DNA from: Lysinibacillus agricola | GTDB lineage: Bacteria; Bacillota; Bacilli; Bacillales_A; Planococcaceae | Length of the DNA: 64,000 bases | Direction of reading: 5' to 3' | Assembly: GCF_016638705.1 (NCBI RefSeq) | Contig: NZ_CP067341.1 | Location: 499,501-563,500, forward strand | Shown: piece after piece, positions 1 through 17,323 of the stretch | How the letters are laid out: each line of letters begins with the position of its first letter | Numbering within the stretch: the stretch's first letter is position 1 | Notes under the pieces: model-generated | Told to the model about the DNA's origin: nothing | Databases searched by the model: none | What the model saw: the letters and a program-made list of their open reading frames with translations, nothing else | Position numbers and translations under genes: made by a program

Positions 1-574
1 AGCGGTTGTTGCCAGTTATGGATTGACTTATCCAATTGGATTAGGGGAGCGTCCTTGTCTTCATTGTTTGTTGGACACACTTCCGTCACAAACACTTACA
101 TGCGATACAGCAGGAGTTATCAGTCCGATCATCCAGGTGGTTGCAGCTCATCAAGTAACGAATGTATTCAAATATCTTGTCGGTGAAGAAGTGGATTCCA
201 ACTTGAAATCTTTTGATCTTTGGACTGGCGATCAGGCCGCGATAGATGTAACATCGCTTCGGCGTTCTGATTGTCTGAGCTGTTCGAAAGATGCAATATA
301 TCCATTTTTATCTATGGAAAGTCAGACAAGAACGGCAGTCTTATGTGGTCGGGATACTGTCCAATTGACATGGTCTCAAGATCGGAAAGTGGAATTAAGG
401 CAGATTGCCGAAGTCATTCATCCAATCGTAACCGGACTCATTTGTAATATGCACCTTTTGGCATGCAATTTTAGTGGCCACCGAATTGTTCTTTTCCGTG
501 ACGGTCGCATGTTGATCCACGGCACCAAGGACGATGTCAAAGCTAAAACGATTGCGGCCAAGTTGATGGGTTAA
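1..574 (+). CDS. thiF: ThiF/MoeB-type adenylyltransferase, 3' part
   Basis: C-terminal part of an E1-like enzyme that adenylates the C-terminus of the sulfur carrier ThiS (or MoaD) with ATP, in thiamine or molybdopterin synthesis. The frame is open from base 2, so the nucleotide-binding N-terminus lies outside the window. Visible family features are two zinc-binding CxxC pairs (CLHC soon after the window start, CLSC about 75 residues later), the conserved stretch around CDTAGVISPIIQVVAAHQ between them, and a tail with AVLCGRDTVQ, which is more typical of the Bacillus ThiF group than of MoeB. No thi gene is seen downstream, so the gene looks like the last of its operon. Family assignment is solid; ThiF versus MoeB is less certain. 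Confidence 0.85.
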   Translation, partial: AVVASYGLTYPIGLGERPCLHCLLDTLPSQTLTCDTAGVISPIIQVVAAHQVTNVFKYLVGEEVDSNLKSFDLWTGDQAAIDVTSLRRSDCLSCSKDAIYPFLSMESQTRTAVLCGRDTVQLTWSQDRKVELRQIAEVIHPIVTGLICNMHLLACNFSGHRIVLFRDGRMLIHGTKDDVKAKTIAAKLMG

Positions 575-1247
575 TATTTTATTAAAAACATCATTGCGGG
601 ATGTATTTTTGTTATTCATCAATAAAAATTGCTTCTTGATTAATGAACTTTTTTTGCACAAGCTGGCAGCGGAATTGGACAAAACATTGGCGAATTAATT
701 CTTTTACTTCCGATTGGATATGGAACGATTAATTGTGCAATAGGTTGGTTCATATCCTTGTACAAGCCACATCATCCGAATACTATTTTTTAAAGGCGCT
801 GCAATTTTATGATCAGAAAATTCGGGGGTGATAAGCTAGACACCCCTTATTTCGTAAGGGTACTGAAAAACTTATGAATTGCTAATAATCATAGTAACTA
901 ATTATGATTTTTTAAATTCTATTAAGTATTAAAAGTCGATTACCTCTAAATCTAAAGGTAAAATAGTTGATTCATTTTATAATTTGAACGTAAGAACCTT
1001 TCTTTCTGAGATTTGGTATGTGATGTACTTTATATTATTAGAGGTGGTTCTTATTAGTTTTCAGAGGAGGGTTTTGTCCCAGACTCTTCTTACGATTAGT
1101 CAACATTATTTAAAGAATAATTTATATTTTTATGAATGTGAAGTGGTGAAGGATATCCCTCACCACTTCACATTCAGATACGCCAAAAAGACCTGACGAT
1201 TTTTGTTTTTTTCGAAAGGTCATTATGATATAGTTCTATATAGGTGA
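575..1247. other. Intergenic stretch with IS relic and palindrome
   Basis: No convincing gene. A short open stretch of 70 codons (984-1196) reads through a perfect palindrome, has no clear ribosome site and looks like chance. At 856-876 the sequence AAGGGTACTGAAAAACTTAT closely resembles the left terminal repeat of the IS derivative at 16879, suggesting an old IS end. A large palindrome lies at 1134-1175. Confidence 0.5.
1134..1175. repeat. 42-bp near-perfect palindrome
   Basis: Two perfectly complementary 16-base arms (1134-1149 and 1160-1175, arm GAATGTGAAGTGGTGA) flank a 10-base centre that contains GGATATCC, itself a palindrome. Neither strand has a clear T-run after the stem, so it is not a standard intrinsic terminator. 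It lies between the end of thiF and the convergent AtxA-like regulator and may be a terminator variant, a protein-binding site or a MITE relic. Confidence 0.6.
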
Positions 1248-2806
1248 TTACGATGAAATTATATCTTTACTGAAAAGAAAACAGTCCATCTTTGTTTTCA
1301 TACATTGATTTAAAGCATATTTAATTTCTAAAAGCTCTTTATTTGAAGGGTTATTATCAATTAAGATGATGGGAATATCTTTTAACAGTAATGGTAAAAC
1401 AGTATCTGTTATAATTAAATCTATATTTTTAAATATCATAGTAGATTCATGTAATTCCCAAACAGGTTTCATTTTCAGGTTTGCTTTCCCCTCGAAACGT
1501 ATATTCAAGTTATTCAAAGTAAAATCACTGATAATTTGAGAGCGGGATGTAACATATAAAACATTCGGTTGCAATTTTTTTTCTGCAGTAATGTATTGTA
1601 ACAATAATAAAGCAAAAAACATTGAGACTTTATTATTGCATTTAAAAGCCATTTTCTCCTCCCAATCCTTTCTGATTATTGCTATTTCTTTCGAAAATAT
1701 AGGATATCCATTAGTAATCTCTGTTAGTACAGTTTTTTTTGGAGAGTATTGAAGCTCTGGCAAAACACTTCTTACTTTTGCAATACAATAAAGACTAAAC
1801 GTTTTAATGACAAAGGTTTTATCATATAGAAAATCATAATCTAAATACTCTTTAAGAAAATGTAAAAATTCAAGAAACTCCTTACATTCGTTTTGAGGAA
1901 CATGTAAATACTTAAAATCTTTGTCTGCAGCAAATAGTTCTAGTGCCGTTACAACGTCAACTTTTGAATACTTTTCAAGAGCTAATTCAATGGAATTTAT
2001 ATACTCCAATTCTGAAAGTATTAATGCTAAATAAATGCATACTCGTTCTTTTATAGGAATTTCATAGTCTAACATTTCTTCCAATAATAAAAACAAATTA
2101 TTAAACTCTTTAAAATACCCTTGCTGTATTAATTTCTCTTCAATACCAAAGGGAAGTTCTCCCACTTCAAATCCTTTCTGACTCCGTGAAATACAAATCT
2201 TTATAAAGTTTAAAAATATATTCATACCAAAATGAGTAATGGTTATTCCGTGTGTTACCTCTAAATAAATCTTGATCTTTAGCGGTATCTCCTGATATTT
2301 TGCGAAACTCTGAAAATAAGAATTATCATTTGTTGAAAATAACATTTCGAATAATAATAAGCGAACGCTTCCTTCATTTCCCTCAATATAATAGGGCCTA
2401 CTTTTTAAAGTTAAAAAAAATGGTTTAATCATCTGTTCCACTTTCCTGAGTAATTCAACAGTCATGTTACGATTTATATATAACAATTCCCCGATTTCTT
2501 CCATAGAATAACCTCTGTTTTCAACCAATAAATTTATTAGCTGAAAAGTTAAATCATTATGATCATGGGTAAATATGCTAGCAACTGTTTCATATTTGGG
2601 ATGAATTAATTTCATACCATATCCCTTTTTTATATGTAAAATCCAATTTTTAGGTAGTTTTTTTTTATAATTTTAATCTCATTTAGAATAGTTTTATATG
2701 AACATCCAATGTAGATTCCTAGTTCTTCAGAGCTAATCCATCCGGTTGTTTTTTCTAAATATTCCAATGTTAAAAACTGCCTTTTAGTTATAATATTTTG
2801 TTTCAT
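1248..2806 (-). pseudogene. AtxA/Mga/RofA-type PRD regulator, frameshifted at A9 run
   Basis: Two overlapping minus-strand frames together make one Mga/AtxA-like regulator of about 519 residues. Frame 1 (2806 to 2630, 58 aa, preceded by AAGGGGAA) encodes the first winged helix (GWISSEELGIYIGCSYKTIL). Frame 2 (from 2615) encodes the second Mga-type HTH, PRD-like helical domains and a C-terminal EIIB-like domain. The frames meet at a run of nine A residues (2658-2666 on this strand). One extra A gives an uninterrupted product through LPKNWILHIKKGYGMKLI, which I recall as matching the AtxA segment between its two HTHs. So the gene is a single-base pseudogene, is phase-variable by slippage, relies on transcriptional slippage, or holds a sequencing error. 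Such regulators control virulence or surface genes in related bacteria (AtxA, Mga, RofA), and a pilus cluster follows. Confidence 0.8.
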
Positions 2807-3140
2807 AGGAATTCCCCTTTTTGATATATAACAATATTATTAGTTCCCATTGACTCTCCATCATAAAAAAATCTGTCTACCTTTTTGAACAAATAAAGAG
2901 GAATTATTTTTTTATACATAAATTTTTTGTGAAAAGAGTAATGATTTCAAGTAGAAAATTATTAAAAACAGTTCTGATTATATACTAAGTTTGTCCTTAC
3001 AGCTCTCATAAATAAATGTCCCAAAAGGTTTTAATTTCTATAAATTCCCTTTTCTTAGGATATGGTACGATTACTACTGCTTGTTTGTTCTATTTCTTCC
3101 TTTAGGTAAAATTTATGATTAATAGCCAATCATATCAAAA

Positions 3141-3187
3141 AATATTGTCGTAATATGTCTAGTATTTCGATATAATATGACAATATT
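3141..3187. promoter_or_regulatory. Imperfect inverted repeat, possible operator
   Basis: Arms beginning AATATTGTC and ending GACAATATT are separated by about 25 bases and continue with partly complementary TAATAT/ATATAAT. It lies upstream of the broken ArsR-type regulator, in DNA likely to have held that gene's promoter. A regulatory role is only inferred. Confidence 0.3.
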
Positions 3188-3471
3188 TTTTCCTTTGTTA
3201 AGAGAAGAAAAAAAGGTTTATAAGTTTTGAGATCTTGTTATCATCATAATAGAAGGTTTAAGGAGGTGCTGTCAATTAATACATTGCCTCCCTAAGGTAG
3301 AAAGAAGAAAAAGAAATCTTATGAATGAGCATATTATGGGTAATTGTAATGATTCTCATTTTGGTTTCTGCCGAATCCCTTGTATATGTAATGTATTTTG
3401 ATAGATATGCTACGTAAGCTAATATAAGTAAGGGAGAATGATAAGTACATATTCAAGATATCCAAAGTGTG

Positions 3472-3708
3472 ATGTATGAAGAGGATGCATATTTGTTAAA
3501 ATTAATGGTGAACCCAGTACGATTGAAAATTATCAATGAAATAATTAAACATAAAACATTAAGTGGAACACAGTTAACCAGAATTCTAGGTATTTGACAG
3601 TCAACATTATTTCAACACCTATCAATGATGAGGAGAATAATTTTAAGTAAGGAAAGAAAAGATGTAGAAAATTATTATCAAATTAGTAATGAAAAGTGGT
3701 GCAAATAA
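3472..3708 (+). pseudogene. PagR-like ArsR-family regulator with in-frame TGA
   Basis: One frame encodes a small ArsR-type winged-helix protein of about 78 residues, interrupted by TGA at 3595-3597 exactly in the recognition-helix region (residues LGI, stop, QSTLFQHL; the family normally reads LxxSQSTVSQHL). The N-terminal part EEDAYLLKLMVNPVRLKIIN and the tail around ENYYQISN recall, from memory, Bacillus anthracis PagR, the pXO1 repressor that also affects S-layer genes. The start is uncertain: ATG 3472 has no good ribosome site, and an AGGGAG at about 3430 serves a different frame. It is probably dead; a read-through product is possible but unlikely. Confidence 0.65.
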
Positions 3709-3976
3709 TTAAGGTGTTTAATGAAGTAATAGTTGATTAGGTAATCTGAGTTATATAAAAGCGAAATACTTTTATATAACTATAGTGGGTAGATTAAATT
3801 TTAAAAATAAACTACTGTTGTCTGTAGGAATAGAGGGAACGAAATTGAGGAGTTCACCTTCCCCCGTGTTTCCTTGAAAGTAACTATAAATTAAGTTGCT
3901 TCTATTCCTATGTACAGCATTGTTACGCCAGCCATGTCAAGGCTGTACATGATTTTGTAACGCGCAAAAGTGAATA

Positions 3977-4021
3977 AACAGAGAAGAAACTATTTGGGGG
4001 TAAAATAGTTTCTTTTCTGTT
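3977..4021. terminator. Strong hairpin with GGGGG loop
   Basis: Arms AACAGAGAAGAAACTATTT and its near-perfect complement (4002-4021) enclose a G-rich loop. No long T-run follows, so termination would be weak. No intact gene lies immediately upstream; it may belong to a lost gene or a small RNA. Confidence 0.4.
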
Positions 4022-4337
4022 AAAGAAATCTAGTTTTTAGCGAGTTATATAAATATTTCAAAGGGGTTTCTTGCTAGTGATTTTCCTTTTGTAGGTGCAA
4101 TAGTCGTGGAAATAAAAAACTAATCAGTAATTAGGAGGGGAGGAATAGTGGTAATTGATACATGTAAATTAATTGAGAATTTATTTACTTTAGAATTCCA
4201 TAGACTGTAATAGAATTACACTGGTGCATTTTATCATGAAAGTGTTGTAGAAACCTTTTCTTATCTTTAGAAGAGGGTAAATGTGTTCTTTATGAATTGT
4301 AGAGGCAAATCTTAAGTATAATTTCTTTTTGTTGTAA

Positions 4338-4384
4338 GCTAAGACATTCACTGGTATCACAAGTGAGTCTTAGCCTTTTTTTGT
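4338..4384 (+). terminator. Rho-independent terminator
   Basis: Stem GCTAAGAC-TTCACT pairs with AAGTGA-GTCTTAGC across a short loop and is followed by CTTTTTTT. It ends a transcript from the decayed region, perhaps a small RNA or the 20-codon frame starting at 4148. Confidence 0.7.
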
Positions 4385-4710
4385 AGTTAAATTAGGATTT
4401 CGAAATATTAGGGAGTATGGAAACGCCTGGATAAGTAAAATCCAACTGTATTATGTGTTCTCTTAACCGTACAAAATCTACGATTACACGGCAAAGGAGG
4501 GGTTCAAATATTATATTGTAACTCCATCTCACTTTCCCCGATGGAAGTATGTACAATTCCTAAGAAGTTTTCAGTGATGAAATATAGAAAATATGATAAC
4601 GAATGTATGGGATTTTCTGTTTTTAATATATGTGAAAGCATTGATGCTGACAGGTTTAAAATTGTGAAGTCAACTTAAATAAACAATATTTCCTTTGATA
4701 AAGGAAATAT

Positions 4711-4925
4711 TTATGACTGATAAAAGTGCTGTATATTGGTAAAGTCTAAGTGGTTCATTGGAAATCTATGGAGTGGATCTCTAATGACCTTTATGATGAA
4801 TGCTTGTGTCAGATGAAACTTATTGGCGATGACGCTGTGCTTCGACCGCTTCTATAATTATTCAATCGGATTCAAGTTCGGTGATAATGGTGGATGGTAA
4901 ATCGACATGGGACGATGCCTGTGTT
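4711..4925 (-). pseudogene. IS630-family transposase remnant (C-terminal DDE part)
   Basis: Read on the minus strand, the segment contains YHPPLSPNLNPIE, the IS630/Tc1-type signature around the third catalytic acid, followed by KHSVIANKFHLTQAFI and a stop at 4711-4713. At least two in-frame stops lie right after the signature, and an earlier frameshift cuts off the upstream half. It is a dead fragment about 200 bp upstream of the adhesin gene. Confidence 0.65.
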
Positions 4926-5120
4926 TTCTAACGGGAACAGTTTTCGAATGGTGAATTCGTTACAGTCTAGATAAAAATCATGTGAGATTAGGCAGGAATC
5001 ACAATCAAAAGCATAGCTTAAGTGACAGAAGACAATGTACCATCACAAAAGTTAAATAAAGGAAGGTGGAAAGTTATAAGTTGGTAAAAAAATCCTAAAA
5101 TTAGTTAGAAAGGAGGATAC

Positions 5121-8100
5121 TTGCTGGTGAGGGAATGTGTTAGTAAAGCGTTGATTCTGATGATGTCGGTGCTATTGTCATTTCAGCAATTTGATATATC
5201 TGCAGTAGCTGCCGCGTCAGAAGTACCAAATTTGGAACTGGATTTTAAAGCGCTACAACAAGAAGTACTTTCTGGAAAAACAGCTGATTTTGAGTTGAAT
5301 GTAAAAGTAACAGGCTCCCAGACAACTTTGACGAATGGTAAACTCGTCGTGATTCTACCGAAGCATCCTGAGGTTCCCGTGACTTACTCGCAAATTCCAA
5401 ACGGTGTTCCAGATGCAACATTAACAATCGCTGGTGTGAGTCCAATCTATAATGCGCAAAACGCTACATTAACTTACAATTTCAAAGAATTAAAATCCGG
5501 ACAAGTCTACAAAACGATTATTCAGGCAGTTCCTGAGTTAGGAAAAACACCTGTCAGCGATAAAGAGAAAAATCTCGAAGCTGATGCGAGTGTGAAAGTA
5601 GACCAATATGCAGATGCGTTGAATTCAGGAAAGAAAACAACAAAAGTAATTTCAAATGGAGCTGTTAGTGCTAATACCACAACATCGGAAACAGCAAAAG
5701 AATCTACCGCAACATCGGAAACAGCAAAAGAATCTACCGCAACATCGGAAACAGCAAAAGAATCTACCGCAACATCGGAAACAGCAAAAGAATCTTTCGC
5801 AACATCGGGAACAGAGAAAGAATCTACCGCAACATCGGAAACAGCAAAAGAATCTTTCGCAACATCGGGAACAGAGAAAGAATCTACCACAACATCGGAA
5901 ACAGCAAAAGAATCTACCGCAACATCGGAAACAGAGAAAGAATCTACCACAACATCGGAAACAGCAAAAGAATCTACCGCAACATCGGAAACAGAGAAAG
6001 AATCTACCACAACATCGGAAACAGCAAAAGGATCTACCGCAACATCGGAAACGGAGAAAGAATCTACCACAACATCGGAAACAGCAAAAGGATCTACCAC
6101 AACATTGAAAACAGCGGTAGCATTTAACGCTACACTAGGAACAGCAAATCTAGAGTTGTATTTAAACTCTTTACAACAAGAAGTGCTTTCTGGAAAAACA
6201 GCCAATTATGAGTTGAATGTAAAAGTAACAGGCTCCCAGACAACTTTGACGAATGGCCAAATGGTTGTCAACTTACCGAAGCATCCAGAGGTTCCTATAA
6301 TTTACCCGCAAATTCAAAACGGTGTTCCGAATGAAACATTAACGATTGATGGTGTGAGTCCAATCTATAATGCACAGAATGGTACTTTAACTTACAATTT
6401 CCCAGAATTGGTATCTGGACAAGTCTATAAAACCATTATTCAAGTAATTCCTGAACTAGGAAAAACGCCTGTTAGCGATAAAGATAAAAATATCAGGAAT
6501 CTCGAATCTAATGCGAGTATTAAAGTAGATCAGTATGCGGAAGCTTTGGACTCCGGTAAAAAAACGACAATGGTCATTTCAAATGGAGCAGTGGGTATCT
6601 CTAAAACCTATACTAGTACAAAAAAGTACAGTAATAATAGCTGGACTTTGAGTACTGACGCTCCGGTTCAAGGGGACTTAGGTGGTTGGACGATTAAAGC
6701 CAGCATCCCTAAAACAGATGCAGGACTGAGCTATATTCAAGAAAATGGTAAAATCCGCATTGTCGATCAAATACCTGCAGGGCTCGTTTTTGATTCTACT
6801 TTACAAGACTCAGGGTTTACGGGTGTATATAATTCCTCAAATAACACAGTAACTTGGGAATTCGATGCACCAACTTTTGCTGAACAAGAACTAGTAAGTA
6901 TTAATGGGAATTTATTTACAAAAGAGTTAAAGATTAATTTGAAATTTGATTCTAGTATCCCAGATTTCTCAACTATAACAAATACGGCAACAGCTACTTA
7001 TCAGCCCTATAGGATTGGAAACATATCCAATATTAGTACATCAGGAAGTAGCGATATAATGATTGCAAGTGGTGGAGGACCCACGCCGGATGTTAATGGT
7101 CAGTATTACTATGGGGTGCATAGAGGGCCTTTGGATGGTAGTAGTGGGAAGATAAATAATGATAATAATAATTTAAATTATATACCAACTGTTACGGATG
7201 AGGCATATTTACGTTTTTTTAGTCCTTCGGTTATAGGCCCTTATGGGATGAACTATCGAATCAATTCAGGAGCTTGGCAAAATAACAATAGCCAGTATCC
7301 TTATCAACAAATAATAGATTCAGGATATAAAACCTATACGATGGAATATACCATTGACAGTAAATTAGATTTAACAGAACTTCTTTTGGTGAAACCTTAT
7401 GAGTTCTATAATACATCAGTTGCAAAAAGACCACTTACACAAATACCAGATACATTTGTCCAATTAAAAATAAACGGTGTATGGAAATCAGAGTATCCTA
7501 TTCAATTCCCAATTTCAAATCAAGTTGGTACAAACACAGGTAAATTGGATGTAACTCAATTTGGTAAGGATGGTCATGTCGAAGCTTTTCGTGTCATTTA
7601 TAGAAATGCTTCAGGTAAAATGTATGGCACCGTTAATTCTTTTTATAATGTAGTAAAAGGTGCTGTAGGACAGACAGCCAATAGTGTAAAGAATTATTTT
7701 GAGTTAAATGATGGTACAAAAATAGAGCGTGAACCTATTGATGATTCATCACCTATGGGGAATCGCCATGTCAATATTGTTCAGAATTCAAGTGAGGATC
7801 CGCTTGTCCAATCTTCTATTCAGTTTGTAGATAGTGGAGGTAAGCCGTTAACAACAGGCTCAAACGTACAACGCGGGAACAACCGTATCCAAATTCAGTT
7901 CCAAAATAATGCTGCATCACAAGCGAATATTACAGGACCGCTGGAACTCGTTGCGTTATTACCAAAAGGGATCAACATATTGGACCAACCAAATATGTTG
8001 TACAGCAATAATTCAGTGAATCCGACATATCAAGTAATCGGTGAGGTTAACGGTCAACAACAAATCAAATTCACTTGGGATAATCAACGTTTATTACCTG

Positions 8101-9380
8101 GTGAAAAAATAACGGCAAACTTTGATGTGGATGTAACACGAACAGCGTTATCAAATCTAGAATTGCAAGTATATGGCTTCTCAGCGAATACGGGGCTGCA
8201 AGTACCTACTTCTCAAGGAAATGTTTATACAAAATCAGTTCTAGAAACAGATACGAATGATCTAAATCAAAACGGAAATACGACTCAGCCTCGTGTCAAG
8301 TCAGCTAATAAGTATTCGATTGTCAAGAACGATAACTTGCAAATTATGAAACAAGTAAAAGGTAGTTTAGACGATGAGTTTTCGTTATTTGGATATACAA
8401 ACCCAGATGGAGATGTAACGTATCGTTTCAATTTAACTAATACAACGAATGAAATTATTGAGCAGTTTATGTTTCTAGATGTATTACCGTCAGTAGGGGA
8501 TTTAGGAATTACGGATAACACAGAACGAGGTAGTAAATTTGAAACGACATTAAAAGGACCTATTAGTTTTGCGGGAACGAAATGGCAAGACCAAGTCACA
8601 GTTTACTACAGTATGTCCAAAAACCCAAAACGTGATGATTTATACGCAACAGTAGATTATTCGGTCGGTTCTACACCACAACCGAACCCAGCTGGTGCAG
8701 AGGATCCAAATTGGATGTTGGCAAGTGCGGTTACAAATTGGAACGATATTCATAGTTTCAAGATTGTCATGAATGATGGCGTCCAATGGTTAGAAGGACA
8801 AGATATTCAATTTGACGTAGAGGCAAAAGCGCCAGCCTTACCAGTAGACACGGCACTTTTTGACGAAAAGACACCTGAAGTGGACCGTGCTGCATGGAAT
8901 TCCTTTGCAGTGACAACGAATGAACTTCTAGCTGTAGAACCCTTACGGGTAGGGGTTATTATGAAAGCGCAACCTGGATCACTTGAAATTACAAAAGTAG
9001 ACGATCAAACAGGAAAAGTTCTCTCAGGTGCAACGTTTGAACTTCGGAAATATGAATCAGATAGTTCAACGCAGTATTCAGTAATAGCTAGTGGTACAAC
9101 GGATGGAGTCGGGAAACTTTTACTTAAGGATATCCCTTTAGGTTCATATAAGCTTGTTGAAACGAAAGCACCAAATGATCATATGCTTTTAAGGGATCCG
9201 ATAGACGTTAATATTACAACATCAGGCGAAGTGGTAAAACTGACAGTGAAAAACTCGAAGATAGGATGGGAGATACCAAAAACAGGCGGAATTGGGACCA
9301 CTTTATTCTACGGAATTGGTGTATTACTTATGATAACCGCGTTATTCCTATTACTTCGCAAGAGAAGTCGAAATAAATAG
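5121..9380 (+). CDS. LPXTG-type surface adhesin, likely pilus tip or minor subunit (IPKTG)
   Basis: About 1419 residues. The start is ambiguous: TTG 5121, CTG 5124 and GTG 5127 are consecutive codons 4, 7 and 10 bases after AGGAGG, so GTG 5127 is quite possible. Order: signal peptide ending near SAVAAA; a domain of about 145 residues (NLELDF...); a Ser/Thr/Glu/Lys stalk of fourteen 10-residue repeats (TATSETAKES type); a second copy of the domain (NLELYL...); a long region of repeated adhesin-like beta domains; a SpaA/Cna-B-like domain (GSLEITKVDDQTGKVLSGA with a LVETKAP E-box-like end); then the sorting signal IPKTGG near residue 1385, a membrane helix and a basic tail. B. cereus BcpB, a tip pilin, also carries an I-P-x-T-G signal handled by a class C sortase. 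The pilin gene starts 35 bases downstream, so the genes are probably co-transcribed. Tip role inferred. Confidence 0.85.
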   Translation: MLVRECVSKALILMMSVLLSFQQFDISAVAAASEVPNLELDFKALQQEVLSGKTADFELNVKVTGSQTTLTNGKLVVILPKHPEVPVTYSQIPNGVPDATLTIAGVSPIYNAQNATLTYNFKELKSGQVYKTIIQAVPELGKTPVSDKEKNLEADASVKVDQYADALNSGKKTTKVISNGAVSANTTTSETAKESTATSETAKESTATSETAKESTATSETAKESFATSGTEKESTATSETAKESFATSGTEKESTTTSETAKESTATSETEKESTTTSETAKESTATSETEKESTTTSETAKGSTATSETEKESTTTSETAKGSTTTLKTAVAFNATLGTANLELYLNSLQQEVLSGKTANYELNVKVTGSQTTLTNGQMVVNLPKHPEVPIIYPQIQNGVPNETLTIDGVSPIYNAQNGTLTYNFPELVSGQVYKTIIQVIPELGKTPVSDKDKNIRNLESNASIKVDQYAEALDSGKKTTMVISNGAVGISKTYTSTKKYSNNSWTLSTDAPVQGDLGGWTIKASIPKTDAGLSYIQENGKIRIVDQIPAGLVFDSTLQDSGFTGVYNSSNNTVTWEFDAPTFAEQELVSINGNLFTKELKINLKFDSSIPDFSTITNTATATYQPYRIGNISNISTSGSSDIMIASGGGPTPDVNGQYYYGVHRGPLDGSSGKINNDNNNLNYIPTVTDEAYLRFFSPSVIGPYGMNYRINSGAWQNNNSQYPYQQIIDSGYKTYTMEYTIDSKLDLTELLLVKPYEFYNTSVAKRPLTQIPDTFVQLKINGVWKSEYPIQFPISNQVGTNTGKLDVTQFGKDGHVEAFRVIYRNASGKMYGTVNSFYNVVKGAVGQTANSVKNYFELNDGTKIEREPIDDSSPMGNRHVNIVQNSSEDPLVQSSIQFVDSGGKPLTTGSNVQRGNNRIQIQFQNNAASQANITGPLELVALLPKGINILDQPNMLYSNNSVNPTYQVIGEVNGQQQIKFTWDNQRLLPGEKITANFDVDVTRTALSNLELQVYGFSANTGLQVPTSQGNVYTKSVLETDTNDLNQNGNTTQPRVKSANKYSIVKNDNLQIMKQVKGSLDDEFSLFGYTNPDGDVTYRFNLTNTTNEIIEQFMFLDVLPSVGDLGITDNTERGSKFETTLKGPISFAGTKWQDQVTVYYSMSKNPKRDDLYATVDYSVGSTPQPNPAGAEDPNWMLASAVTNWNDIHSFKIVMNDGVQWLEGQDIQFDVEAKAPALPVDTALFDEKTPEVDRAAWNSFAVTTNELLAVEPLRVGVIMKAQPGSLEITKVDDQTGKVLSGATFELRKYESDSSTQYSVIASGTTDGVGKLLLKDIPLGSYKLVETKAPNDHMLLRDPIDVNITTSGEVVKLTVKNSKIGWEIPKTGGIGTTLFYGIGVLLMITALFLLLRKRSRNK
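5229..5670 (+). repeat. First copy of duplicated adhesin domain
   Basis: Encodes about 145 residues that recur almost unchanged at 6147-6594 (shared: LQQEVLSGKTA, ELNVKVTGSQTTLTNG, LPKHPEVP, GVSPIYNAQN, VPELGKTPVSDK or IPELGKTPVSDK). The copies differ mainly by scattered substitutions and a 3-residue insertion in copy 2, which marks a fairly recent intragenic duplication around the repeat stalk. Confidence 0.8.
5681..6100 (+). repeat. Fourteen 30-bp in-frame tandem repeats (stalk)
   Basis: Exact 30-bp periodicity: units start AACATCGGAA(or GGA)ACAG and encode 10 residues of the type TATSETAKES, with TTT, FAT, GTEKES and AKGS variants. A degenerate fifteenth unit follows. Because 30 is a multiple of 3 and the unit has few stop-prone triplets, other frames are also open here; these are by-products. 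Copy number can change by slippage without breaking the frame, which would alter stalk length. Confidence 0.9.
6147..6594 (+). repeat. Second copy of duplicated adhesin domain
   Basis: Partner of the segment at 5229-5670, with the repeat stalk between them. The two copies could recombine and delete the stalk. Confidence 0.8.
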
Positions 9381-9415
9381 ATTCGAAAATTTATAGAGAC
9401 GGTGAGGAAAAGAAA

Positions 9416-11074
9416 ATGAAAAAAACGCTAAGGCTTTTACTAGCTTTTGTAGTAATGTTCGCAACATTACCGGGTATGTTTGCAAAGGCAGCAACCCCAA
9501 CGAATGGTACTTTAACAATCCACAAGTATGAACAAGAAAAAAATGGAGCGCCAAGTACAGAAGGTGATGGTTCTGCAAATCAAACCATTCCTACAGATGC
9601 TAAGGCATTACCAGGCGTAACGTTTGAGATTAAACAAATTATGTCATTCAATAAGATTTCAAATGATGGAAAAATTGCAGAAGAATCTGTAACACCAGTA
9701 ACAAATGCAACTCCGATTAAAGTAACAACAGATGCAGACGGTCAAGCTGTATTTAAAGATTTACCATTAGGTCGTTATGAAGTAAAAGAAGTTTCTGGTC
9801 CACCACATATTAATTTAAACCCAAATACATATACAGTCGATATTCCAATGACAAGTAAGAATGGTGACGTATTAAACTATGATGTTCACATGTATCCAAA
9901 GAACGAAATTAAACGCGGGGCAGTAGAATTAACAAAAAAAGGTGCAGAAGGTAAAGATCTAGCAGGTGCTGAATTCACTTTATTTAAAGCAGATGGCACA
10001 GCAGTAAAAACTGGTTTAACAACAGGTACTAATGGGAAAATTCGTGCAGAAGGTCTAGAATACGGTGATTACTATTTCCAAGAAATAAAAGCACCTACAG
10101 GATATGTTTTAGATTCAACAAAATATCCGTTTTCAATTCAAGAATCCGGTACAATTAATGCAGACGGTACGATTAAATCTGGTGTTGTCGTGCCAGTAGA
10201 AATTACAAACTATCTAGAACCAACAATTGATAAAAAGATTAATAACGATTTAGAGTTTTTACCAATTAATCCGTTAAAAGATTACAATTATGATATTAAA
10301 ACGTTAATTCCAGAAGATATTAAGGATTATAAAAATTATGCAGTAACAGATACGCTTGATGATCGATTAACAATTCAAGGTACACCAGTTGTAACAATCG
10401 ATGGCGTAGCAGTAGATGCAAGTGTTGTAGAAGTAACGGTAGATGGTCAAAAAGTAACAGCTACTGTAAAAGATTTTTCAAAGTTAGATGGTAAAAAAGA
10501 ACTTCATTTGCAAATCAAGTCGCAAATTAAAGAAGAAACAGCGGCAGGAACAGAAATTCCAAATACAGCAGCAATTGATTTTACAAACAAAAACGACATA
10601 ACAGGTAATAAGGAAACAAATCCAGTTATTGTAACACCAACAGCAGGAAGCATTCAATTAACAAAAGTGGATGGTGCAGACGGAAAAACATTAGCAGGTG
10701 CAGAATTTGAATTACGCGATAACGGTAAAGTCGTAGTATTAGGAGGGCAACCAGTAAAAGGTGTATCAGACGTAAATGGTTTGATCACATGGAACAATAT
10801 CCCTTACGGAGATTACCAAATCGTTGAGACAAAAGCACCGACTTATATAAAAGATGATGGTACAACAGCTTCTTATCAACAATTAAGAGACCCAATTGAT
10901 GTAACAATTAATGCAGATCATCAAAAAATTGAATTAGATGTAAAAAATAATAAGAGCGGCTGGTACCTTCCTTCAACAGGCGGTATGGGAACAATACTAT
11001 TCTCTATAGTAGGTATTGTACTAATGGCTGCAGCGACATTTGTTTTCTTCCGAAGAAAAACAGTAAATAACTAA
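9416..11074 (+). CDS. Major pilin, SpaA/BcpA type (LPSTG)
   Basis: 552 residues, the size I recall for BcpA of Bacillus cereus. Signal peptide (MKKTLRLLLAFVVMFATLPG, cleavage near FAKA-A). YPKN pilin motif at residues 160-163, whose Lys162 would form the inter-subunit amide bond. Cna-B/SpaA-like domains, with E-box-like segments YYFQEIKAPTGY and YQIVETKAP, should form internal isopeptide bonds. LPSTGG begins at residue 518, followed by a membrane helix and RRK tail. A class C sortase would cleave LPSTG and join the Thr to Lys162 of the next subunit. ATG 9416 follows GGTGAGGA. A hairpin terminator right after the gene separates it from the sortase gene, as expected for a highly expressed structural subunit. 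Confidence 0.92.
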   Translation: MKKTLRLLLAFVVMFATLPGMFAKAATPTNGTLTIHKYEQEKNGAPSTEGDGSANQTIPTDAKALPGVTFEIKQIMSFNKISNDGKIAEESVTPVTNATPIKVTTDADGQAVFKDLPLGRYEVKEVSGPPHINLNPNTYTVDIPMTSKNGDVLNYDVHMYPKNEIKRGAVELTKKGAEGKDLAGAEFTLFKADGTAVKTGLTTGTNGKIRAEGLEYGDYYFQEIKAPTGYVLDSTKYPFSIQESGTINADGTIKSGVVVPVEITNYLEPTIDKKINNDLEFLPINPLKDYNYDIKTLIPEDIKDYKNYAVTDTLDDRLTIQGTPVVTIDGVAVDASVVEVTVDGQKVTATVKDFSKLDGKKELHLQIKSQIKEETAAGTEIPNTAAIDFTNKNDITGNKETNPVIVTPTAGSIQLTKVDGADGKTLAGAEFELRDNGKVVVLGGQPVKGVSDVNGLITWNNIPYGDYQIVETKAPTYIKDDGTTASYQQLRDPIDVTINADHQKIELDVKNNKSGWYLPSTGGMGTILFSIVGIVLMAAATFVFFRRKTVNN

Positions 11075-11110
11075 TTATTTATATAGTTATACTTATAGTA
11101 GTTACATGTG

Positions 11111-11142
11111 AAAAGAGGAGAGCCATTCATTTCTCCTCTTTT
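11111..11142 (+). terminator. Hairpin between pilin and sortase genes
   Basis: AAAAGAGGAGA pairs perfectly with TCTCCTCTTTT across a 10-base loop, ending in TTTTCTG. Lying between the pilin stop and the sortase start, it probably works as a partial terminator that makes pilin mRNA exceed sortase mRNA. It also shows that the longer sortase reading frame from GTG 11108 is not the true start. Confidence 0.65.
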
Positions 11143-11173
11143 CTGTATGTCAGTACATGGTAAAGGGGTCACT

Positions 11174-11998
11174 ATGAAACGGAAGATTATTTTTGGATGT
11201 ATTTTTTTATTAGGACTTGGTATTTTCTTATATCCTACCATAAGTAACTGGCTGGCTACGAGAACGCATTATTCTCAGGTTAGTTCGTATGATAAAACAG
11301 TAAAATCATTGCAAAAGAAAGAGCTAGAACGTCGGGAAAAAGAAGCGGATGCGTACAATAAACAAGTTCAAAATTCGAATCAAACATTTTCAGATCCATT
11401 CGCAGAAAAAGAAAAACGTGATGGGAAATCTTATGACGATGCCCTTAACATCGGGGATGTTATGGGGTATGTGGAAATCCCAAAAGTTAAGGTGAAACTC
11501 CCTATTTATCCAGGAACTTCTGAAGAAGTTTTAGGTCGGGGGGTAGGTCACTTGGACAAGTCTTCTTTGCCAGTAGGAGGAAAAGGAACACATACCGTAT
11601 TAACAGGACATCGAGGTTTGCCTTCGGCATTATTGTTTACAGATTTAGATAAAATGAAGGAATCTGATGTGTTCTATATTCATTCCTTAGGTAAAGTCCT
11701 TGCCTATCAAGTTGATCAGATTAAAGTTGTATTACCAAGTGAAACAGAGGATTTACTCCCTGTAAATAATCAAGATTATGCCACACTACTTACTTGTACG
11801 CCTTATGGAGTGAATACGCATAGGTTATTAGTAAGAGGGCACCGCATTCCTTACGAACTGAAAGAAAAAGAAAAAGCGATCGCTTTAGCGCCATCTATGT
11901 TAGAAGATTGGAAGGTTATTGCCTCAATAAGCGCTATTGTAATAGCAGTAATACTCCTAAATTTCACGAAAGTTAGAAAGAAAAAGCAAACGAGTTAA
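11174..11998 (+). CDS. Class C (pilus-assembly) sortase 1
   Basis: 274 residues from ATG 11174, which follows AAAGGGG; an upstream in-frame GTG at 11108 lies in the terminator stem and is rejected. A membrane helix at each end (residues 5-25 and about 245-262), typical of class C pilin polymerases. Catalytic set: His146 (TVLTGHRG), Cys208 (YATLLTCTP) and Arg217 (HRLLVRG). A DPF lid motif at residues 74-76 would cover the active site, as in other pilus sortases. Likely substrates are the upstream LPSTG pilin and IPKTG adhesin, as with SrtD and BcpA/BcpB in B. cereus. Acts on the outer face of the membrane. Confidence 0.92.
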   Translation: MKRKIIFGCIFLLGLGIFLYPTISNWLATRTHYSQVSSYDKTVKSLQKKELERREKEADAYNKQVQNSNQTFSDPFAEKEKRDGKSYDDALNIGDVMGYVEIPKVKVKLPIYPGTSEEVLGRGVGHLDKSSLPVGGKGTHTVLTGHRGLPSALLFTDLDKMKESDVFYIHSLGKVLAYQVDQIKVVLPSETEDLLPVNNQDYATLLTCTPYGVNTHRLLVRGHRIPYELKEKEKAIALAPSMLEDWKVIASISAIVIAVILLNFTKVRKKKQTS

Positions 11999-12144
11999 AT
12001 TGTCAAACATATAGAAATGTGAGCTTTGGGGTTAATAGATAATCGTCGATGTTTTTTATTTAAATAAGGATTGGGAGAAGTTTTAGAAAGAGAGTGAACG
12101 TTGATTGACAATAATAATAGAAGGAATATATCAAGAAATATTGG

Positions 12145-12660
12145 ATGGAAGAAGACAAAGGATTTCCTCCTGGTACATGGAACTGGGATGTAGACAGAAA
12201 ATTAAAAAGGAGGATAACAAGATATTTAATTGAGGATGTTTTAAAGTGGAGCGATGAGGATATTATAGAAAAGTGGAACTAGAATCACATCAAAAAATTT
12301 AAATTAACTAGTGTGATGCTGATTTATCGTGGTAGTCCATATGAAATGTTAAACGCAGCTTATTCGAATCGATTTGAACCATGGGAGTTGAAGCATATTC
12401 CTAGATGATTTTGGACATATGAAAAGAGTTTGGAAATGTTAAAAAAGATTATTGAAGAAAAAGAAAGTTTAACAGAGTTTCAATTACTAGAGAAGTATGA
12501 TTTAAATTGGCTGGTGAAGAATAAGCTAGGTGGGGTATGTCCGAAGAATGATAGTCCGTATCAAATGTTAAATGCAGCATACCCAAATCGATTTAAAGAG
12601 TGGGAATTAAAAGTAGCACCTAATAGATTCTGGGAAAAAGAGAAAGAGAAAAAATATTAA
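12145..12660 (+). pseudogene. DUF4046-like protein gene with two in-frame stops
   Basis: One frame is open from ATG 12145 apart from TAG at 12280 and TGA at 12406. It encodes FPPGTWNWDVDRKL, ITRYLIEDVLKWSDEDI and two repeats of the motif SPYEMLNAAYSNRF.PWELK / SPYQMLNAAYPNRFKEWELK, each followed by an FW pair. I associate this pattern with DUF4046, a domain of unknown function in bacilli, but only from memory. The last part (ATG 12436 to 12660, 74 residues, one repeat) is intact but has no clear ribosome site. The gene seems to have been inserted between, or survived between, the two sortases. Confidence 0.6.
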
Positions 12661-12719
12661 GGATGAAATGGATAAATAAGGGATATCCATTTCGCAGTTA
12701 TTAAAATGGGAGTGAGAAA

Positions 12720-12842
12720 ATGGATGAAGCAAAACAAATTGAGTACCCTTTTAATAAATATTGGAAATGCAGTACATCTACGATGTTAAAAGAGATATAT
12801 TTAAAAGAATTTGAAGCAGAAAACGGTAAGGATGTGTACTGA
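12720..12842 (+). CDS. Small 40-residue ORF upstream of sortase 2
   Basis: ATG 12720 follows GGGAGTGAG and encodes 40 residues (MDEAKQIEYPFNKYWKC...) ending five bases before the likely sortase 2 start, so translation of the two may be coupled. No family recognised. It may be a further remnant of the DUF4046-like gene, which also contains short charged blocks with paired aromatics. Low confidence as a functional gene. Confidence 0.35.
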   Translation: MDEAKQIEYPFNKYWKCSTSTMLKEIYLKEFEAENGKDVY

Positions 12843-12846
12843 ATGT

Positions 12847-13671
12847 ATGAAAAGGGGATTATTCAGTACGATATTATTTGTTTTTGGATTAGGAGTATTT
12901 CTATACCCAACTGTTTCAAATTACATCAATCATCGTATGTATGAAGTAGTCATTACAGATTATGAAAAACAGATGGGGAAATTAGCAGATGTGGACATAC
13001 GTAAAAAGTTTCAAGTAATGGCAGCTTATAACGAATCATTAAAAGGGTTAGCCATTCCTACGGCAGATCCTTTTAGCAGTAGCGACAAGAAAAATACAAT
13101 GCTTGTCAATATGATAAAAGAAGATGATGTACTTGGTACCGTTAGCATTCCGAAAATCAATGAAGAACTTCCCATCTACTTAGGTGCAAACGAGAAGCAT
13201 CTAAGCATGGGTGTTGGTCAAATTGGTGGAACTTCCTTTCCTATCGGTGGACCGGATTCGCATACTGTATTAGCGGGACATCGTGGTTATCATGGTGCCA
13301 AGATGTTCCGGTATCTCGATCAACTTGAAAATGGTGACAAATTCTATATTCGTATTTTAGGAAAAGAATTAACATATGAAGTAACGGGAAGCGAAGTCAT
13401 TTATCCTAACCAAGTGGATAAACTCGCGATTGTGAAGGGAAAGGATAAGGCTACATTACTCACATGTGAACCTTACACGTCAAGTAAATACCGTTTACTC
13501 ATTTATGGTGAGAGGATAAAAGAAGAAATACCTCAAAATGATACACAAGCTCATACAGAAAGTATCAAACAATCCCAAACACATGACTTTATCAAAACAA
13601 TCGGTTTTATCATAATAGGACTGCTGGTTATTTTTATTGGATTGTTTGGGTTGCTAAGGAAGAAAAAATAA
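12847..13671 (+). CDS. Class C sortase 2
   Basis: 274 residues from ATG 12847, the same length as sortase 1 and collinear with it; in-frame TTG 12811 and ATG 12832 upstream are alternatives, and none has a strong ribosome site. N-terminal and C-terminal membrane helices, His145 (TVLAGHRG), Cys207 (ATLLTCEP), Arg216 (KYRLLIYG) and a DPF lid motif at residues 74-76. The two enzymes diverge clearly outside these motifs, so this is an old duplication or separate acquisition, perhaps with one sortase attaching the tip or basal subunit and the other polymerising the shaft. No third pilin is encoded nearby. Confidence 0.9.
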   Translation: MKRGLFSTILFVFGLGVFLYPTVSNYINHRMYEVVITDYEKQMGKLADVDIRKKFQVMAAYNESLKGLAIPTADPFSSSDKKNTMLVNMIKEDDVLGTVSIPKINEELPIYLGANEKHLSMGVGQIGGTSFPIGGPDSHTVLAGHRGYHGAKMFRYLDQLENGDKFYIRILGKELTYEVTGSEVIYPNQVDKLAIVKGKDKATLLTCEPYTSSKYRLLIYGERIKEEIPQNDTQAHTESIKQSQTHDFIKTIGFIIIGLLVIFIGLFGLLRKKK

Positions 13672-13723
13672 ACCGTGAGAAGATATAAGTAAATTTCAAA
13701 AAGAGATAAAGGTGGATTGTCTA

Positions 13724-13885
13724 ATGAATGTAGAAATGAATTGTATAACACTAAGATACCTAGTAGAAAATAAGAGAGCAGAAATGATTCAATTAACAAA
13801 ACATTATATGCTCACTTCCTTGGAAGTTATTCGAATAAGTCAAGAATTAGATAATTTATTGAATATGTTACGAAAATGCGAATGA
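13724..13885 (+). CDS. Spo0E-like aspartyl-phosphate phosphatase
   Basis: 53 residues, missed by gene callers with a 60-residue cut-off. ATG 13724 follows AAAGGTGG by a workable distance. The protein has the Spo0E-family layout of two helices with EMIQLTKHYMLTSLEVIRIS and the signature SQELDNLLN. Members dephosphorylate Spo0A~P and delay sporulation. The gene follows sortase 2 by 52 bases, and no terminator was seen between them, so it may be co-transcribed with the pilus cluster. Confidence 0.8.
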   Translation: MNVEMNCITLRYLVENKRAEMIQLTKHYMLTSLEVIRISQELDNLLNMLRKCE

Positions 13886-14109
13886 CATTTAACTAGGTTT
13901 CCGAAAAGAATTATCCTCACATGAAACTAAAGCAAGATCAAACAAGAAAATTTATAAAAAACATTAGTAATTACTCAGTCACCCCTATGATTTAGCTGTT
14001 TAATATTTTTATTTTGCAGTTTAATTCCTTAACTTCCTAATGTTAAATATATCAACTTACGGAAGTTGACGTGTATGATCAACAAATCAGTTATTTTAAA
14101 AGCTTATGA
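13886..14109. other. Short intergenic stretch, nothing recognised
   Basis: AT-rich spacer between the Spo0E-like gene and the IS66 remnant. It contains no supported gene, terminator or repeat. Confidence 0.4.
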
Positions 14110-14521
14110 AAAAGGGCCATCAACCTGATCATAAATGTCATACACTTTGCCAAGTGGAACATCCAGATCGTGTGATTATTCATCCTGTGAAAGTGTGCTA
14201 GTGTTGTCAATCATCATTTAGAAAGTGAACCTGTTAGCTCGAAAAAAGTACGACAAGTGCCAACATGTTTTGTGCAATGTGCATCTTCTTCGTGAATTGC
14301 ACGGTATATTTGAACTAACGAAGCAAGAATGGGCACAAGAAATGGCTGATTTTCTTTTGAAAGTGAAAAATCAAAAGGAAACAGGTGAATTAGATGCAAA
14401 AAAATTGTCAACTTGCATCGAGAATGTGAAATTAAAAGGAGAAGAATCGAATCCTATTCGCCCAAAAGAAAAAAATACGTCCGCGGCAGACAGAAGCAAA
14501 GTCTGGCACGTAATCTCTTAA
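14110..14521 (+). pseudogene. IS66-family transposase remnant
   Basis: Pieces of an IS66 transposase in different frames. The first (14110-14220) reads GHQPDHKCHTLCQVEHPDRV and IIHPVKVC, the zinc-finger N-terminal part. The second (from 14224) reads CNVHLLRELHGIFELTKQEW, the HLLREL region of the DDE core. The intervening sequence is deleted and the 3' part is missing. Its end abuts the truncated hemAT gene, so the IS insertion or a later deletion probably removed the 5' end of hemAT. Confidence 0.75.
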
Positions 14522-14558
14522 ATCTCGATTTTGGCATTTATTCTCTATCCCGCTAATT

Positions 14559-15670
14559 CATTGTTTTTACAAGAATCTAGAATTGGAAGAATCCCTACTG
14601 ACACTAATTAATAATAATAGTTCAGTTGCAGCCTTGAAGAAAACTTTGAAATTACATATTTTAGAAATGTTTTCGGGAATAATCGATGATGAATATTTTT
14701 AAAAAGAACTAGAATAGCACAAATACATGTAAAAATTGGTCTACAGACAAAATGGTATTTATGTGCTTTTCAAAATATATTTATAACGATTATTGAGATT
14801 ATTGAAAAGAATCTTTCTGAAAAAGAACTTTATTATTCTAGTGTAAAAGCACTCTCAAAATTATTTAACTTAGAGCAACAAATAGTTCTTGAAGAATATG
14901 ATAAAGAGATAAGTAGAATTAAAGAAAAATCAAATAAACAGGTAGAAAAAACTAAAATTCAAGTTGTGAATTCAACTGAAAATTTAGCAGCAATTTCAGA
15001 ACAAACGAATGCAGCATTTCAAGAATTACATATTCATTGCACAGAAATGGTGGAAACCGTAAATGCTGGAAAAGAGTTATCTGCTTTAGCGGAGGAGAGA
15101 GCAGAAAATGGGAAATTTCAAATAAGTAAACAGAATAGTAATATGAAGAAGGTTCATAAGGCAGTCAAAATAATTTCCAATGATATAAAAGAGTTATTAA
15201 AAATAACAAAGGAAGTTCAAGGCATTATTGATATTGTAACGAAAATAGCTGATCAAACTAATTTATTATCTTTAAACGCAGCAATTGAAGCAGCAAGGGC
15301 CGGCGAACATGGAAGAGGATTTGCAGTTGTAGCAGACGAAGTTAAAAAATTATCAGAAGTAACGAAAAAATCAGTCTCAAATGTAGCTCATTTAATTTTA
15401 TCCACAGTGTCTAATGTGGAAAAGTTATCAGCTTCACTTGACATGATTAATGAATCTGTTCATGACGAACATCAAATTATGAAACAAACAGACATATGTT
15501 TTGAGCAAATTTTACAATCTATGAAAGAAACCCAAGAAAATAATGAACATTCACAAGAAGAGATTAATGTTTTTGCTAACGTTGTCAATGAATTAGGTAA
15601 AGCATTTGAAGAAGTTGCATTGTCGGCTGACCGACTTGCTAGTTTTGCTAATGAATTAAACAATGGATAA
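14559..15670 (+). pseudogene. hemAT: HemAT-like heme aerotaxis transducer, 5'-truncated and frameshifted
   Basis: An N-terminal globin-sensor domain and a C-terminal methyl-accepting signalling domain are recognisable but split. The first frame reads FYKNLELEESLLTLINNNS and [19 protein letters not shown], then stops at about 14698. The rest continues in another frame with [20 protein letters not shown] (the proximal heme region, conserved HVxIGL and WY) and ends in [20 protein letters not shown], the core of the CheA-interacting hairpin. A one-base deletion in a T5A5 tract at 14696-14705 accounts for the shift. The start is lost at the IS66 remnant. A 235-residue product from GTG 14966 would carry only the signalling domain. 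HemAT senses oxygen and signals to CheA. Confidence 0.8.
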
Positions 15671-15682
15671 GGGGTCTTCTAA

Positions 15683-16681: not shown

Positions 16682-16777
16682 GTCCAAATCTCGTAGAGGG
16701 GGAAACACAACTTTAAATTTCCATAAATATTCATTTTTGTTAAAAATTTATTAAAAAAATTTAGAAGCCATTTATAT

Positions 16778-17304: not shown

Positions 17305-17323
17305 TAATCAATGCACCTATTTT

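What the first reader, a model, noticed from the sequence alone, without database searches (positions are those of the whole stretch)
1248..2806. AtxA/RofA-like master regulator split at a nine-A run
Two frames overlap precisely at an A9 tract, and one extra A restores a full-length Mga/AtxA-type regulator with the expected linker sequence between its two HTH domains. Homopolymer slippage is a classic way to phase-vary surface structures, and a pilus cluster lies downstream. RofA-like regulators in streptococci also sit beside pilus loci. Alternatives are a fixed mutation, transcriptional slippage that still makes the protein, or a sequencing error.
Basis: partly seen in the sequence, partly recalled or inferred. 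Interest (0 to 1): 0.75.

Follow-up and report, generated by a model that had tools for sequence, protein, structure and literature searches.

The report
Pilus regulator gene split at A9
A Lysinibacillus genome carries a pilus gene cluster whose neighbouring switch gene is cut in two by a reading-frame break at a run of nine A's; related bacteria keep the switch gene whole beside similar surface genes, so this copy is probably a recent and perhaps leaky loss rather than a proven on/off device.

Summary
Two minus-strand frames, 2806-2630 (58 aa) and 2672-1248 (455 aa from ATG 2615), overlap by 40 bases that contain A9 (2658-2666). The pieces are the first HTH, and the Mga HTH plus C-terminal part, of one AtxA/Mga-superfamily regulator, nearest NCBIfam's AcpB/EbpR/MafR group but below its cut-off. 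The break falls inside the first winged HTH, before its wing, not in a linker between two HTHs. The host is a Lysinibacillus; the gene lies in ~45 kb missing from the matching place in one sibling. The pilus link is the strongest result: all 6 close homologues, from 4 other genera of the family, are unbroken and divergent from LPXTG/SpaA adhesin or pilus genes, against 0 of 11 more distant regulator loci. None of the 6 has a run of 5 or more at this site, no unbroken copy above 79% identity was found, and the C piece shows no excess change at conserved sites. Some other A9 runs inside genes of this assembly stay in frame, but no reads were available. Most likely: a recent, real frame loss at a slippage-prone run in a pilus activator. 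Phase variation, transcript slippage and assembly error stay open. New member of a known kind.

The parts
2630..2806 (-). N-terminal piece, 58 aa: first HTH (HTH_11) without its wing
   Evidence: HTH_11 E 6.4e-5, below the curated cut-off; 50% identity over residues 6-49 to the intact G395 homologue; also recorded as a 58-aa protein in 3 contigs
2658..2666 (-). A9 run (T9 on +) inside the 40-base overlap 2633-2672 of the two frames
1248..2615 (-). C-terminal piece, 455 aa: Mga HTH plus C-terminal part (PRD/EIIB-like by family resemblance only)
   Evidence: Mga 37.8 bits against 21.1; up to 79% identity to B. cereus-group homologues; AcpB_EbpR_MafR 70.4 bits against a cut-off of 130
2807..5120 (.). 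divergent intergenic region, 2.3 kb, with no ORF over 56 aa; 218-537 bp in the five homologues that could be measured
   Evidence: only short matches in PLSDB and in 2 of 31 other Lysinibacillus genomes
5121..9380 (+). LPXTG surface protein, 1419 aa, SpaA domain, 30-bp repeats in the N-terminal part
9416..11074 (+). SpaH/EbpB-type LPXTG major pilin, 552 aa
11108..11998 (+). class C sortase 1, 296 aa
   Evidence: 290.3 bits against 160
12811..13671 (+). class C sortase 2, 286 aa
   Evidence: 240.8 bits against 160

Best explanation
The gene is a horizontally acquired activator of the AtxA/Mga superfamily, nearest AcpB/EbpR/MafR, that most likely controlled the adjacent sortase-pilus operon from the divergent intergenic region. 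In this genome it has recently lost its frame at an A9 run within the first winged HTH. As written the DNA gives a 58-aa HTH stub and, from ATG 2615 with a plausible ribosome site, perhaps a 455-aa protein without the first HTH, so activation of the pilus is probably off or much reduced. Because A9 is prone to slippage, the loss may be leaky or revertible, but nothing shows that it is selected as a switch. Shown: the split, the family, the conserved linkage, intact relatives, open pilus genes. Inferred: that it activates the pilus, that the break is real and recent, and that function is lost.
For: Pieces of one family. Conserved linkage: 6 of 6 close homologues outside the genus (G395, G430, G441, G521, G547, G520; four genera) are unbroken, 481-505 aa, and divergent from LPXTG/SpaA adhesin or pilus genes; in G441 a run of N lies in between, so direct adjacency is shown for 5 of 6. 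0 of 11 more distant AtxA/Mga-type loci have an LPXTG protein or a sortase, pilin or adhesin relative in 17-18 kb. G441 carries homologues of this window's adhesin (40% over 1156 aa), pilin (37% over 603) and sortase (41% over 282). Recent break: the C piece differs at 7 of 119 columns invariant among the other homologues, the other 12 rows at 0-21 of 71-132; no second frame break. Real rather than assembly: A9 runs inside the UvrA-like gene (codon 88 of 748, relatives align across it) and the PAS-HD gene (codon 211 of 332, inside the HD_5 match) stay in frame; 128 A/T7 and 12 A/T8 runs lie inside intact orthologues. Acquired: no close copy in the 31 other genomes of the genus, and the pilin has only weak partial matches there; the region is missing from the matching place in G001.
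Against: No reads or RNA. This assembly has somewhat more frame breaks than its sibling: 2 long convincing splits (5 flagged) beside 298 intact orthologues, against no long one (7 flagged, 111-141 aa) the other way, and lower completeness with higher contamination (96.18/5; most siblings 99-100/1-2). The pilus operon looks intact, which is not expected if its activator had been dead for long. PRD and EIIB parts of this copy reach no curated cut-off.
Confidence: 0.47

Rival explanations
1. Assembly or sequencing error in the A9 run; the gene is whole in the cell.
For: Longest A run of the gene; the assembly shows more frame breaks than its sibling and lower completeness; the rest of the gene looks constrained; all six relatives are whole.
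Against: Two A9 runs inside genes checked against relatives or a domain match stay in frame, and a T9 lies well inside a third open ORF; none of the 5 flagged splits has a run above 6 within 60 bases. The split pieces are recorded in 3 contigs, but these may be copies of one assembly.
Confidence: 0.22
2. RNA-polymerase slippage (or ribosomal frameshifting) on the A run still makes a share of full-length regulator, so the gene works at reduced dose.
For: Nine is the run length at which selection against slippage shows in a large share of genomes (PMC1088944, passages); a frame-interrupted tssM with A11 is rescued this way in Citrobacter rodentium (PMC4256274, abstract). The C piece shows no decay.
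Against: No run of 5 or more at the site in 6 of 6 homologues, so not an old programmed site; no stable downstream RNA structure (z 0.77); [quoted passage not shown]
Confidence: 0.17
3. Phase variation: replication slippage in the run switches the regulator, hence the pilus, on and off within the population.
For: B. subtilis swrA switches by a poly(A) tract of 8-9 at roughly 1e-4 to 1e-5 (PMC2831843, passages); B. breve sortase pili switch at G-tracts (PMC9187656, abstract). Early position in the gene, linked to surface structures, no second break.
Against: No alternative-length copy seen: the best other homologues are 79% identical; no run of 5 or more at the site in 6 of 6 homologues; 2.3 kb without a longer ORF now separates regulator and pilus.
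Confidence: 0.12
4. The split is functional as two proteins: the 455-aa piece starts at ATG 2615 and works without the first HTH.
For: AAAAAGGG 7 bases before ATG 2615 (sequence); in Mga the first HTH is only partly required (PMC8560693 section 8); 5 of 12 database homologues are recorded without the first HTH.
Against: Six of six unbroken homologues keep the first HTH; some of the short database entries are partial or lie on short contigs.
Confidence: 0.02

Closest known systems
EbpR-ebpABC of Enterococcus faecalis (PMC2824692; start of abstract and passages seen)
   Same: AtxA/Mga-family regulator at a sortase-pilus locus; same NCBIfam group AcpB/EbpR/MafR; SpaH/EbpB-type pilin
   Different: Here the regulator is split, below the group's curated score, divergent with a 2.3-kb gap, and regulation is untested
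AtxA, AcpB, MgaSpn and an E. faecalis putative Mga-family regulator (solved structures; listings only)
   Same: Best profile and fold matches: AcpB 7.7e-23 and AtxA 1.1e-16 by profile; AtxA, AcpB, MgaSpn and 3sqn are the six fold matches at E 0.001 or better (low-confidence model)
   Different: Direct sequence search gives AcpB at 2.2e-7 and otherwise only three kinase entries at 0.07-0.13; neighbours here are pilus genes
swrA phase variation in Bacillus subtilis (PMC2831843, passages)
   Same: Frame break in a poly(A) run of 8-9 near the start of a regulatory gene
   Different: swrA switching has been measured; here one length in one assembly
Sortase-pilus G-tract switch of Bifidobacterium breve (PMC9187656, abstract and outline)
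   Same: Homopolymer frame control of sortase pili
   Different: There a G-tract inside the pilus loci; here an A-tract in a regulator, unproven
Spy1336/R28-Spy1337 of Streptococcus pyogenes (PMC7098570, passages)
   Same: Divergent surface protein and regulator, with a T tract (mostly 9-11) setting expression
   Different: That tract is intergenic; this one is coding
tssM transcriptional frameshifting, Citrobacter rodentium (PMC4256274, abstract and outline)
   Same: Interrupted frame at an A run in a bacterial gene
   Different: A11 and proven; here A9 and untested

Membership tests
AtxA/Mga superfamily (PRD-containing virulence regulators), AcpB/EbpR/MafR group | First HTH (HTH_11 / HTH_Mga) | tested here: inconclusive
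   58-aa piece 23.2 bits, cut-off 25, wing missing; HTH_Mga and HTH_11 each matched in 6 of 13 rows of A1 and in G395
AtxA/Mga superfamily (PRD-containing virulence regulators), AcpB/EbpR/MafR group | Second HTH, Pfam Mga | tested here: met
   37.8 bits, cut-off 21.1
AtxA/Mga superfamily (PRD-containing virulence regulators), AcpB/EbpR/MafR group | Two PRDs and an EIIB-like C-terminal domain | tested here: inconclusive
   PRD matched in 4 of 13 rows at E 0.1, not in this copy; helical middle and alpha/beta end in a model of homologue P0003 with mean pLDDT 57.8; profile matches AtxA over profile positions 5-319 of 503
AtxA/Mga superfamily (PRD-containing virulence regulators), AcpB/EbpR/MafR group | Curated score of NF053736 (130 bits) | tested here: not met
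   C piece 70.4, P0003 106.6, G395 127.3; 5 of 6 family relatives pass: G430 154.2, G441 130.5, G521 131.4, G547 177.4, G520 136
AtxA/Mga superfamily (PRD-containing virulence regulators), AcpB/EbpR/MafR group | One uninterrupted frame | tested here: not met
Pilus-linked regulator of the EbpR kind | Adjacent sortase-pilus or adhesin genes, linkage conserved | tested here: met
   window plus 6 of 6 close homologues; a sortase or sortase relative in the fetched stretch in 4 of 6 (G395, G430, G441, G520)
Pilus-linked regulator of the EbpR kind | Activates pilus transcription | not testable with these tools
   needs expression data
Homopolymer phase-variable gene | Tract in coding sequence whose length sets the frame | tested here: met
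   A9 in the overlap of the frames
Homopolymer phase-variable gene | Both lengths occur in strains or populations | tested here: inconclusive
   only the split form found; no other copy above 79% identity; no reads
Programmed transcriptional slippage gene | Tract conserved among homologues | tested here: not met
   0 of 6 relatives have a run of 5 or more at the site; DNA of the B. cereus-group homologues was not available

The most novel reading that the evidence does not exclude
The A9 run is a contingency switch: slippage at it turns an AcpB/EbpR-type activator, and with it a whole sortase pilus, on and off in an environmental Lysinibacillus. This would be a coding-tract switch in a regulator of this superfamily, for which I saw no example among the rows listed by the searches.
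Probability: 0.12. Interest if true: 0.6.

Novelty: new member of a known kind. Interest (0 to 1): 0.36.

Why it matters
It shows a conserved pairing, across five genera of one family, of an AcpB/EbpR-type regulator divergent from SpaA/Cna-type adhesins or pili, in genomes far from the pathogens in which this regulator family was studied. The split copy is a natural broken version for asking whether the regulator is needed for pilus expression, and whether A9 runs are leaky in this genus.

Tried and rejected
RofA as nearest kind: rejected, NCBIfam gives AcpB/EbpR/MafR as the only or top hit. Carriage by known plasmids or phages: no match of the C piece in PLSDB, INPHARED or IMG/VR. Scan of GTDB r220 genomes with A1: 320 stretches matched a pattern, none a relative; it rests on two short patterns and may leave out the own genome or near ones, so it can miss relatives, and later found some in another genome set. 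Sortase 1 in GTDB r220: best of 134 relatives 49% identical, 79 loci listed, mostly Firmicutes of other orders, none titled Lysinibacillus. Pilin in plasmids: 612 records, all under 60% identity. Programmed ribosomal frameshift with a downstream structure: no stable fold. An ArsR-like reading of a small ORF at 3469-3705 with an in-frame stop: seen by eye only, Pfam gives nothing, so not claimed. A DNA selection test (dN/dS) was not possible: the close homologues were to hand as protein only and the family relatives are about 22-30% identical. Fold search used a model with mean pLDDT 57.8, so its TM-scores of about 0.2-0.3 are not used. The 200 kb of G011 fetched for the frame-break control gave no usable orthologues (one search ended in an error there) and was dropped; 6 partial matches (30-90% cover) were left out of the split count. 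One search (21 genomes, class of G176) found nothing and shows nothing. The weak G049 hit was not followed. Linkage set: the 12 genomes matched at 1e-15 (own, 5 of the genus, 6 of other genera) were all looked at, plus G176, G108, G144, G420 and G013; neighbours were judged by ORFs of at least 100-120 aa, an LPXTG pattern and BLAST against this window's and G395's genes.

Full report
What is there. On the minus strand, frame 1 starts at 2806 and stops at 2630-2632 (58 aa); frame 2 opens after a stop at 2673-2675 and runs to 1248 (474 codons, 455 aa from ATG 2615). The overlap of 40 bases (2633-2672) holds an A9 run at 2658-2666. The first piece matches HTH_11 (6.4e-5, just under the curated score), the second the Mga HTH (37.8 bits, above it). 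Against an unbroken homologue in another genus of the family (G395), the first piece aligns at residues 6-49 (50% identity) and the second from residue 65 on (30%), so the two are parts of one protein. Homology of frame 1 ends at a conserved IIKK and that of frame 2 begins at a conserved LP just after it, which puts the break at the run.

Host. The genome (G000, 5.29 Mb, one contig) is a Lysinibacillus: 16S 98% identical to plasmid records labelled Lysinibacillus fusiformis and Lysinibacillus sp., with two equally close records labelled Stenotrophomonas that I take to be mislabelled; MenC from this window is 95% identical to L. xylanilyticus. Orthologue order against the sibling G001 shows that about 45 kb of this genome, 490,124-535,684 (window -9377 to 36,184), stands where G001 has 7.7 kb (only two blocks of G001, 600 kb in all, were compared); regulator and pilus lie in it. 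In 32 genomes of the genus only the own one has a close copy of the regulator; 6 others have remote Mga/AtxA-type proteins. For the pilin, 10 of the 31 other genomes have matches, all weak and partial (best 1.4e-8, 39% identity or less).

Closest proteins. The C piece finds 13 proteins, itself included, in a search that scored only the 7,999 candidates sharing most words. The other 12 lie at 48-79% identity; the 8 of 12 that bear a name are from the Bacillus cereus group. Seven of the 12 carry the N-terminal HTH in frame; five (P0002, P0008, P0010, P0012, P0013) start inside: two on long contigs (P0010 93,728 bases, P0013 64,744), one marked partial (P0002), two on contigs of 4,850 and 7,111 bases. 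The N piece finds itself and one partial B. toyonensis protein. Both pieces are recorded in 3 contigs, the longest being this genome; whether the other two are independent is unknown.

The pilus link. Downstream on the plus strand lie an LPXTG/SpaA surface protein (1419 aa), a SpaH/EbpB-type pilin (552 aa) and two class C sortases, all with open frames. A scan of the family (261 genomes, profile A1) gave 12 genomes at 1e-15 or better: own, 5 of the genus and 6 of four other genera. In all 6 of the other genera (G395, G430, G441, G521, G547, G520) the regulator is one unbroken frame of 481-505 aa and is divergent from a SpaA/Cna, LPXTG-anchored or pilin gene; in G441 a run of N lies between regulator and pilin, so direct adjacency is shown for 5 of 6. 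G441 has homologues of the window's adhesin (40% over 1156 aa), pilin (37% over 603) and sortase (41% over 282) in one block; G430 has, besides the divergent adhesin and a sortase, a second block with a pilin relative (40% over 592) and a sortase relative (39%) a few kb to the other side of the regulator. In contrast, none of 11 more distant regulator loci (6 loci in the 5 genus genomes, and G013, G176, G108, G144, G420) shows an LPXTG protein or a sortase, pilin or adhesin relative in 17-18 kb. The intergenic distance is 218-537 bp in the five relatives that can be measured and 2315 bp here; the sequence between regulator and pilus here holds no ORF over 56 aa, gives only a 154-base weak match in PLSDB and only 40- and 36-base matches in 2 of 31 siblings.

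Family. NCBIfam's AcpB/EbpR/MafR model is the only hit of the C piece (70.4 bits) and of P0003 (106.6) and the top hit of the six family relatives; 5 of these 6 pass its 130-bit cut-off, G395 scores 127.3. By profile the nearest solved structures are AcpB (7.7e-23) and AtxA (1.1e-16); the fold list is led by AtxA, AcpB, MgaSpn and an E. faecalis Mga-family protein. I file it as a divergent, broken relative of the AcpB/EbpR/MafR group, not as a member by curated score. EbpR is reported as important for transcription of the E. faecalis pilus operon (PMC2824692, abstract and passages), which gives the working model for this locus.

Is the break real? Comparing 520 kb of this genome with 600 kb of the sibling: 298 orthologues intact, 5 flagged as split, of which 2 are long and convincing (a 745-aa gene at 482,088-484,317 and a 290-aa gene at 670,690-671,540); none of the 5 has a run above 6 within 60 bases. 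The reverse comparison also gave 298 intact and flagged 7, all short (111-141 aa), six of them just downstream of 16S rRNA positions (16S places). So frame breaks are somewhat more common here than in the sibling, but not concentrated at long runs: 128 A/T7 and 12 A/T8 runs lie inside intact orthologues; all 13 A/T9 runs of the sample fall outside intact orthologues, so this control does not reach nine. Of 15 A/T runs of 9 or more in the sample, 5 lie inside an ORF of at least 100 aa, two near an ORF end (codon 8 of 369, codon 388 of 392) and three well inside: UvrA-like (codon 88 of 748), PAS-HD (codon 211 of 332) and a 433-aa ORF (codon 120). A relative aligns across the first (residues 4-747, 53%) and the HD_5 match spans the second; the third was not checked against relatives. 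This argues against systematic run errors but cannot exclude one.

Is it old? At 119 columns invariant among the other rows, the C piece differs at 7; the other rows differ at 0-21 of 71-132. Against the close rows only, it differs at 18 of 220, the same as P0005 (18 of 220), less than P0007 (44 of 246) and, as a share, more than the other six. There is no second stop or shift. The break is therefore recent, or the gene still matters in some cells or transcripts.

Switch or accident? A9 is within reach of both replication and transcript slippage (PMC2831843, PMC1088944, passages). But none of the six relatives has a run of 5 or more at this place; their longest runs, elsewhere in the gene, are 5-9. 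The A-rich coding of the conserved K-K makes such a run likely by itself in a gene of 24-28% GC (29% of synonymous shuffles of the N piece). No stimulatory RNA structure follows. So an evolved, conserved switch is not supported; a lineage-specific one is possible and cheap to test with reads.

Verdict. An ordinary kind of event (frame loss at a homopolymer) in a gene whose connection to the pilus is well supported by gene order. Literature searches on the combination (listings) showed analogues but no report of this locus; the search for Lysinibacillus, sortase and pilin together listed one paper, on Macrococcus. RofA and most other papers in those listings were not opened.

Noticed in passing
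window 5675-6115: Thirty-base tandem repeat, 14.7 copies, in the surface protein gene (10-aa unit); copy number could vary between strains.
   Followed up: no
window 43947-44691: 21-base repeat in 35.8 copies (90% matches) with long open frames on both strands; ORFs there have no or only weak matches in G001.
   Followed up: no
window 39210-39431: Degenerate 21/42/84-base repeats between genes.
   Followed up: no
window 16821-16883: Bacillaceae-1 RNA (RF01690), 37 bits against a cut-off of 35 (only window 1-20000 was searched).
   Followed up: no
window 3137-3191: AT-rich inverted repeat, 23-base arms with 87% complementarity, upstream of the regulator start; possible operator.
   Followed up: no
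G000:C1 482088-484317 and 670690-671540: Two further genes split in frame relative to the sibling G001, at short runs; either pseudogenes or assembly errors.
   Followed up: partly
P0002, P0008, P0010, P0012, P0013: Five of 12 database homologues of the regulator lack the N-terminal HTH; recurrent N-terminal loss or partial records.
   Followed up: partly
L215, L191, L217, L218, L219: LPXTG adhesins of 727-2282 aa with SpaA and collagen-binding domains, divergent from AcpB/EbpR-type regulators in other genera of the family.
   Followed up: yes
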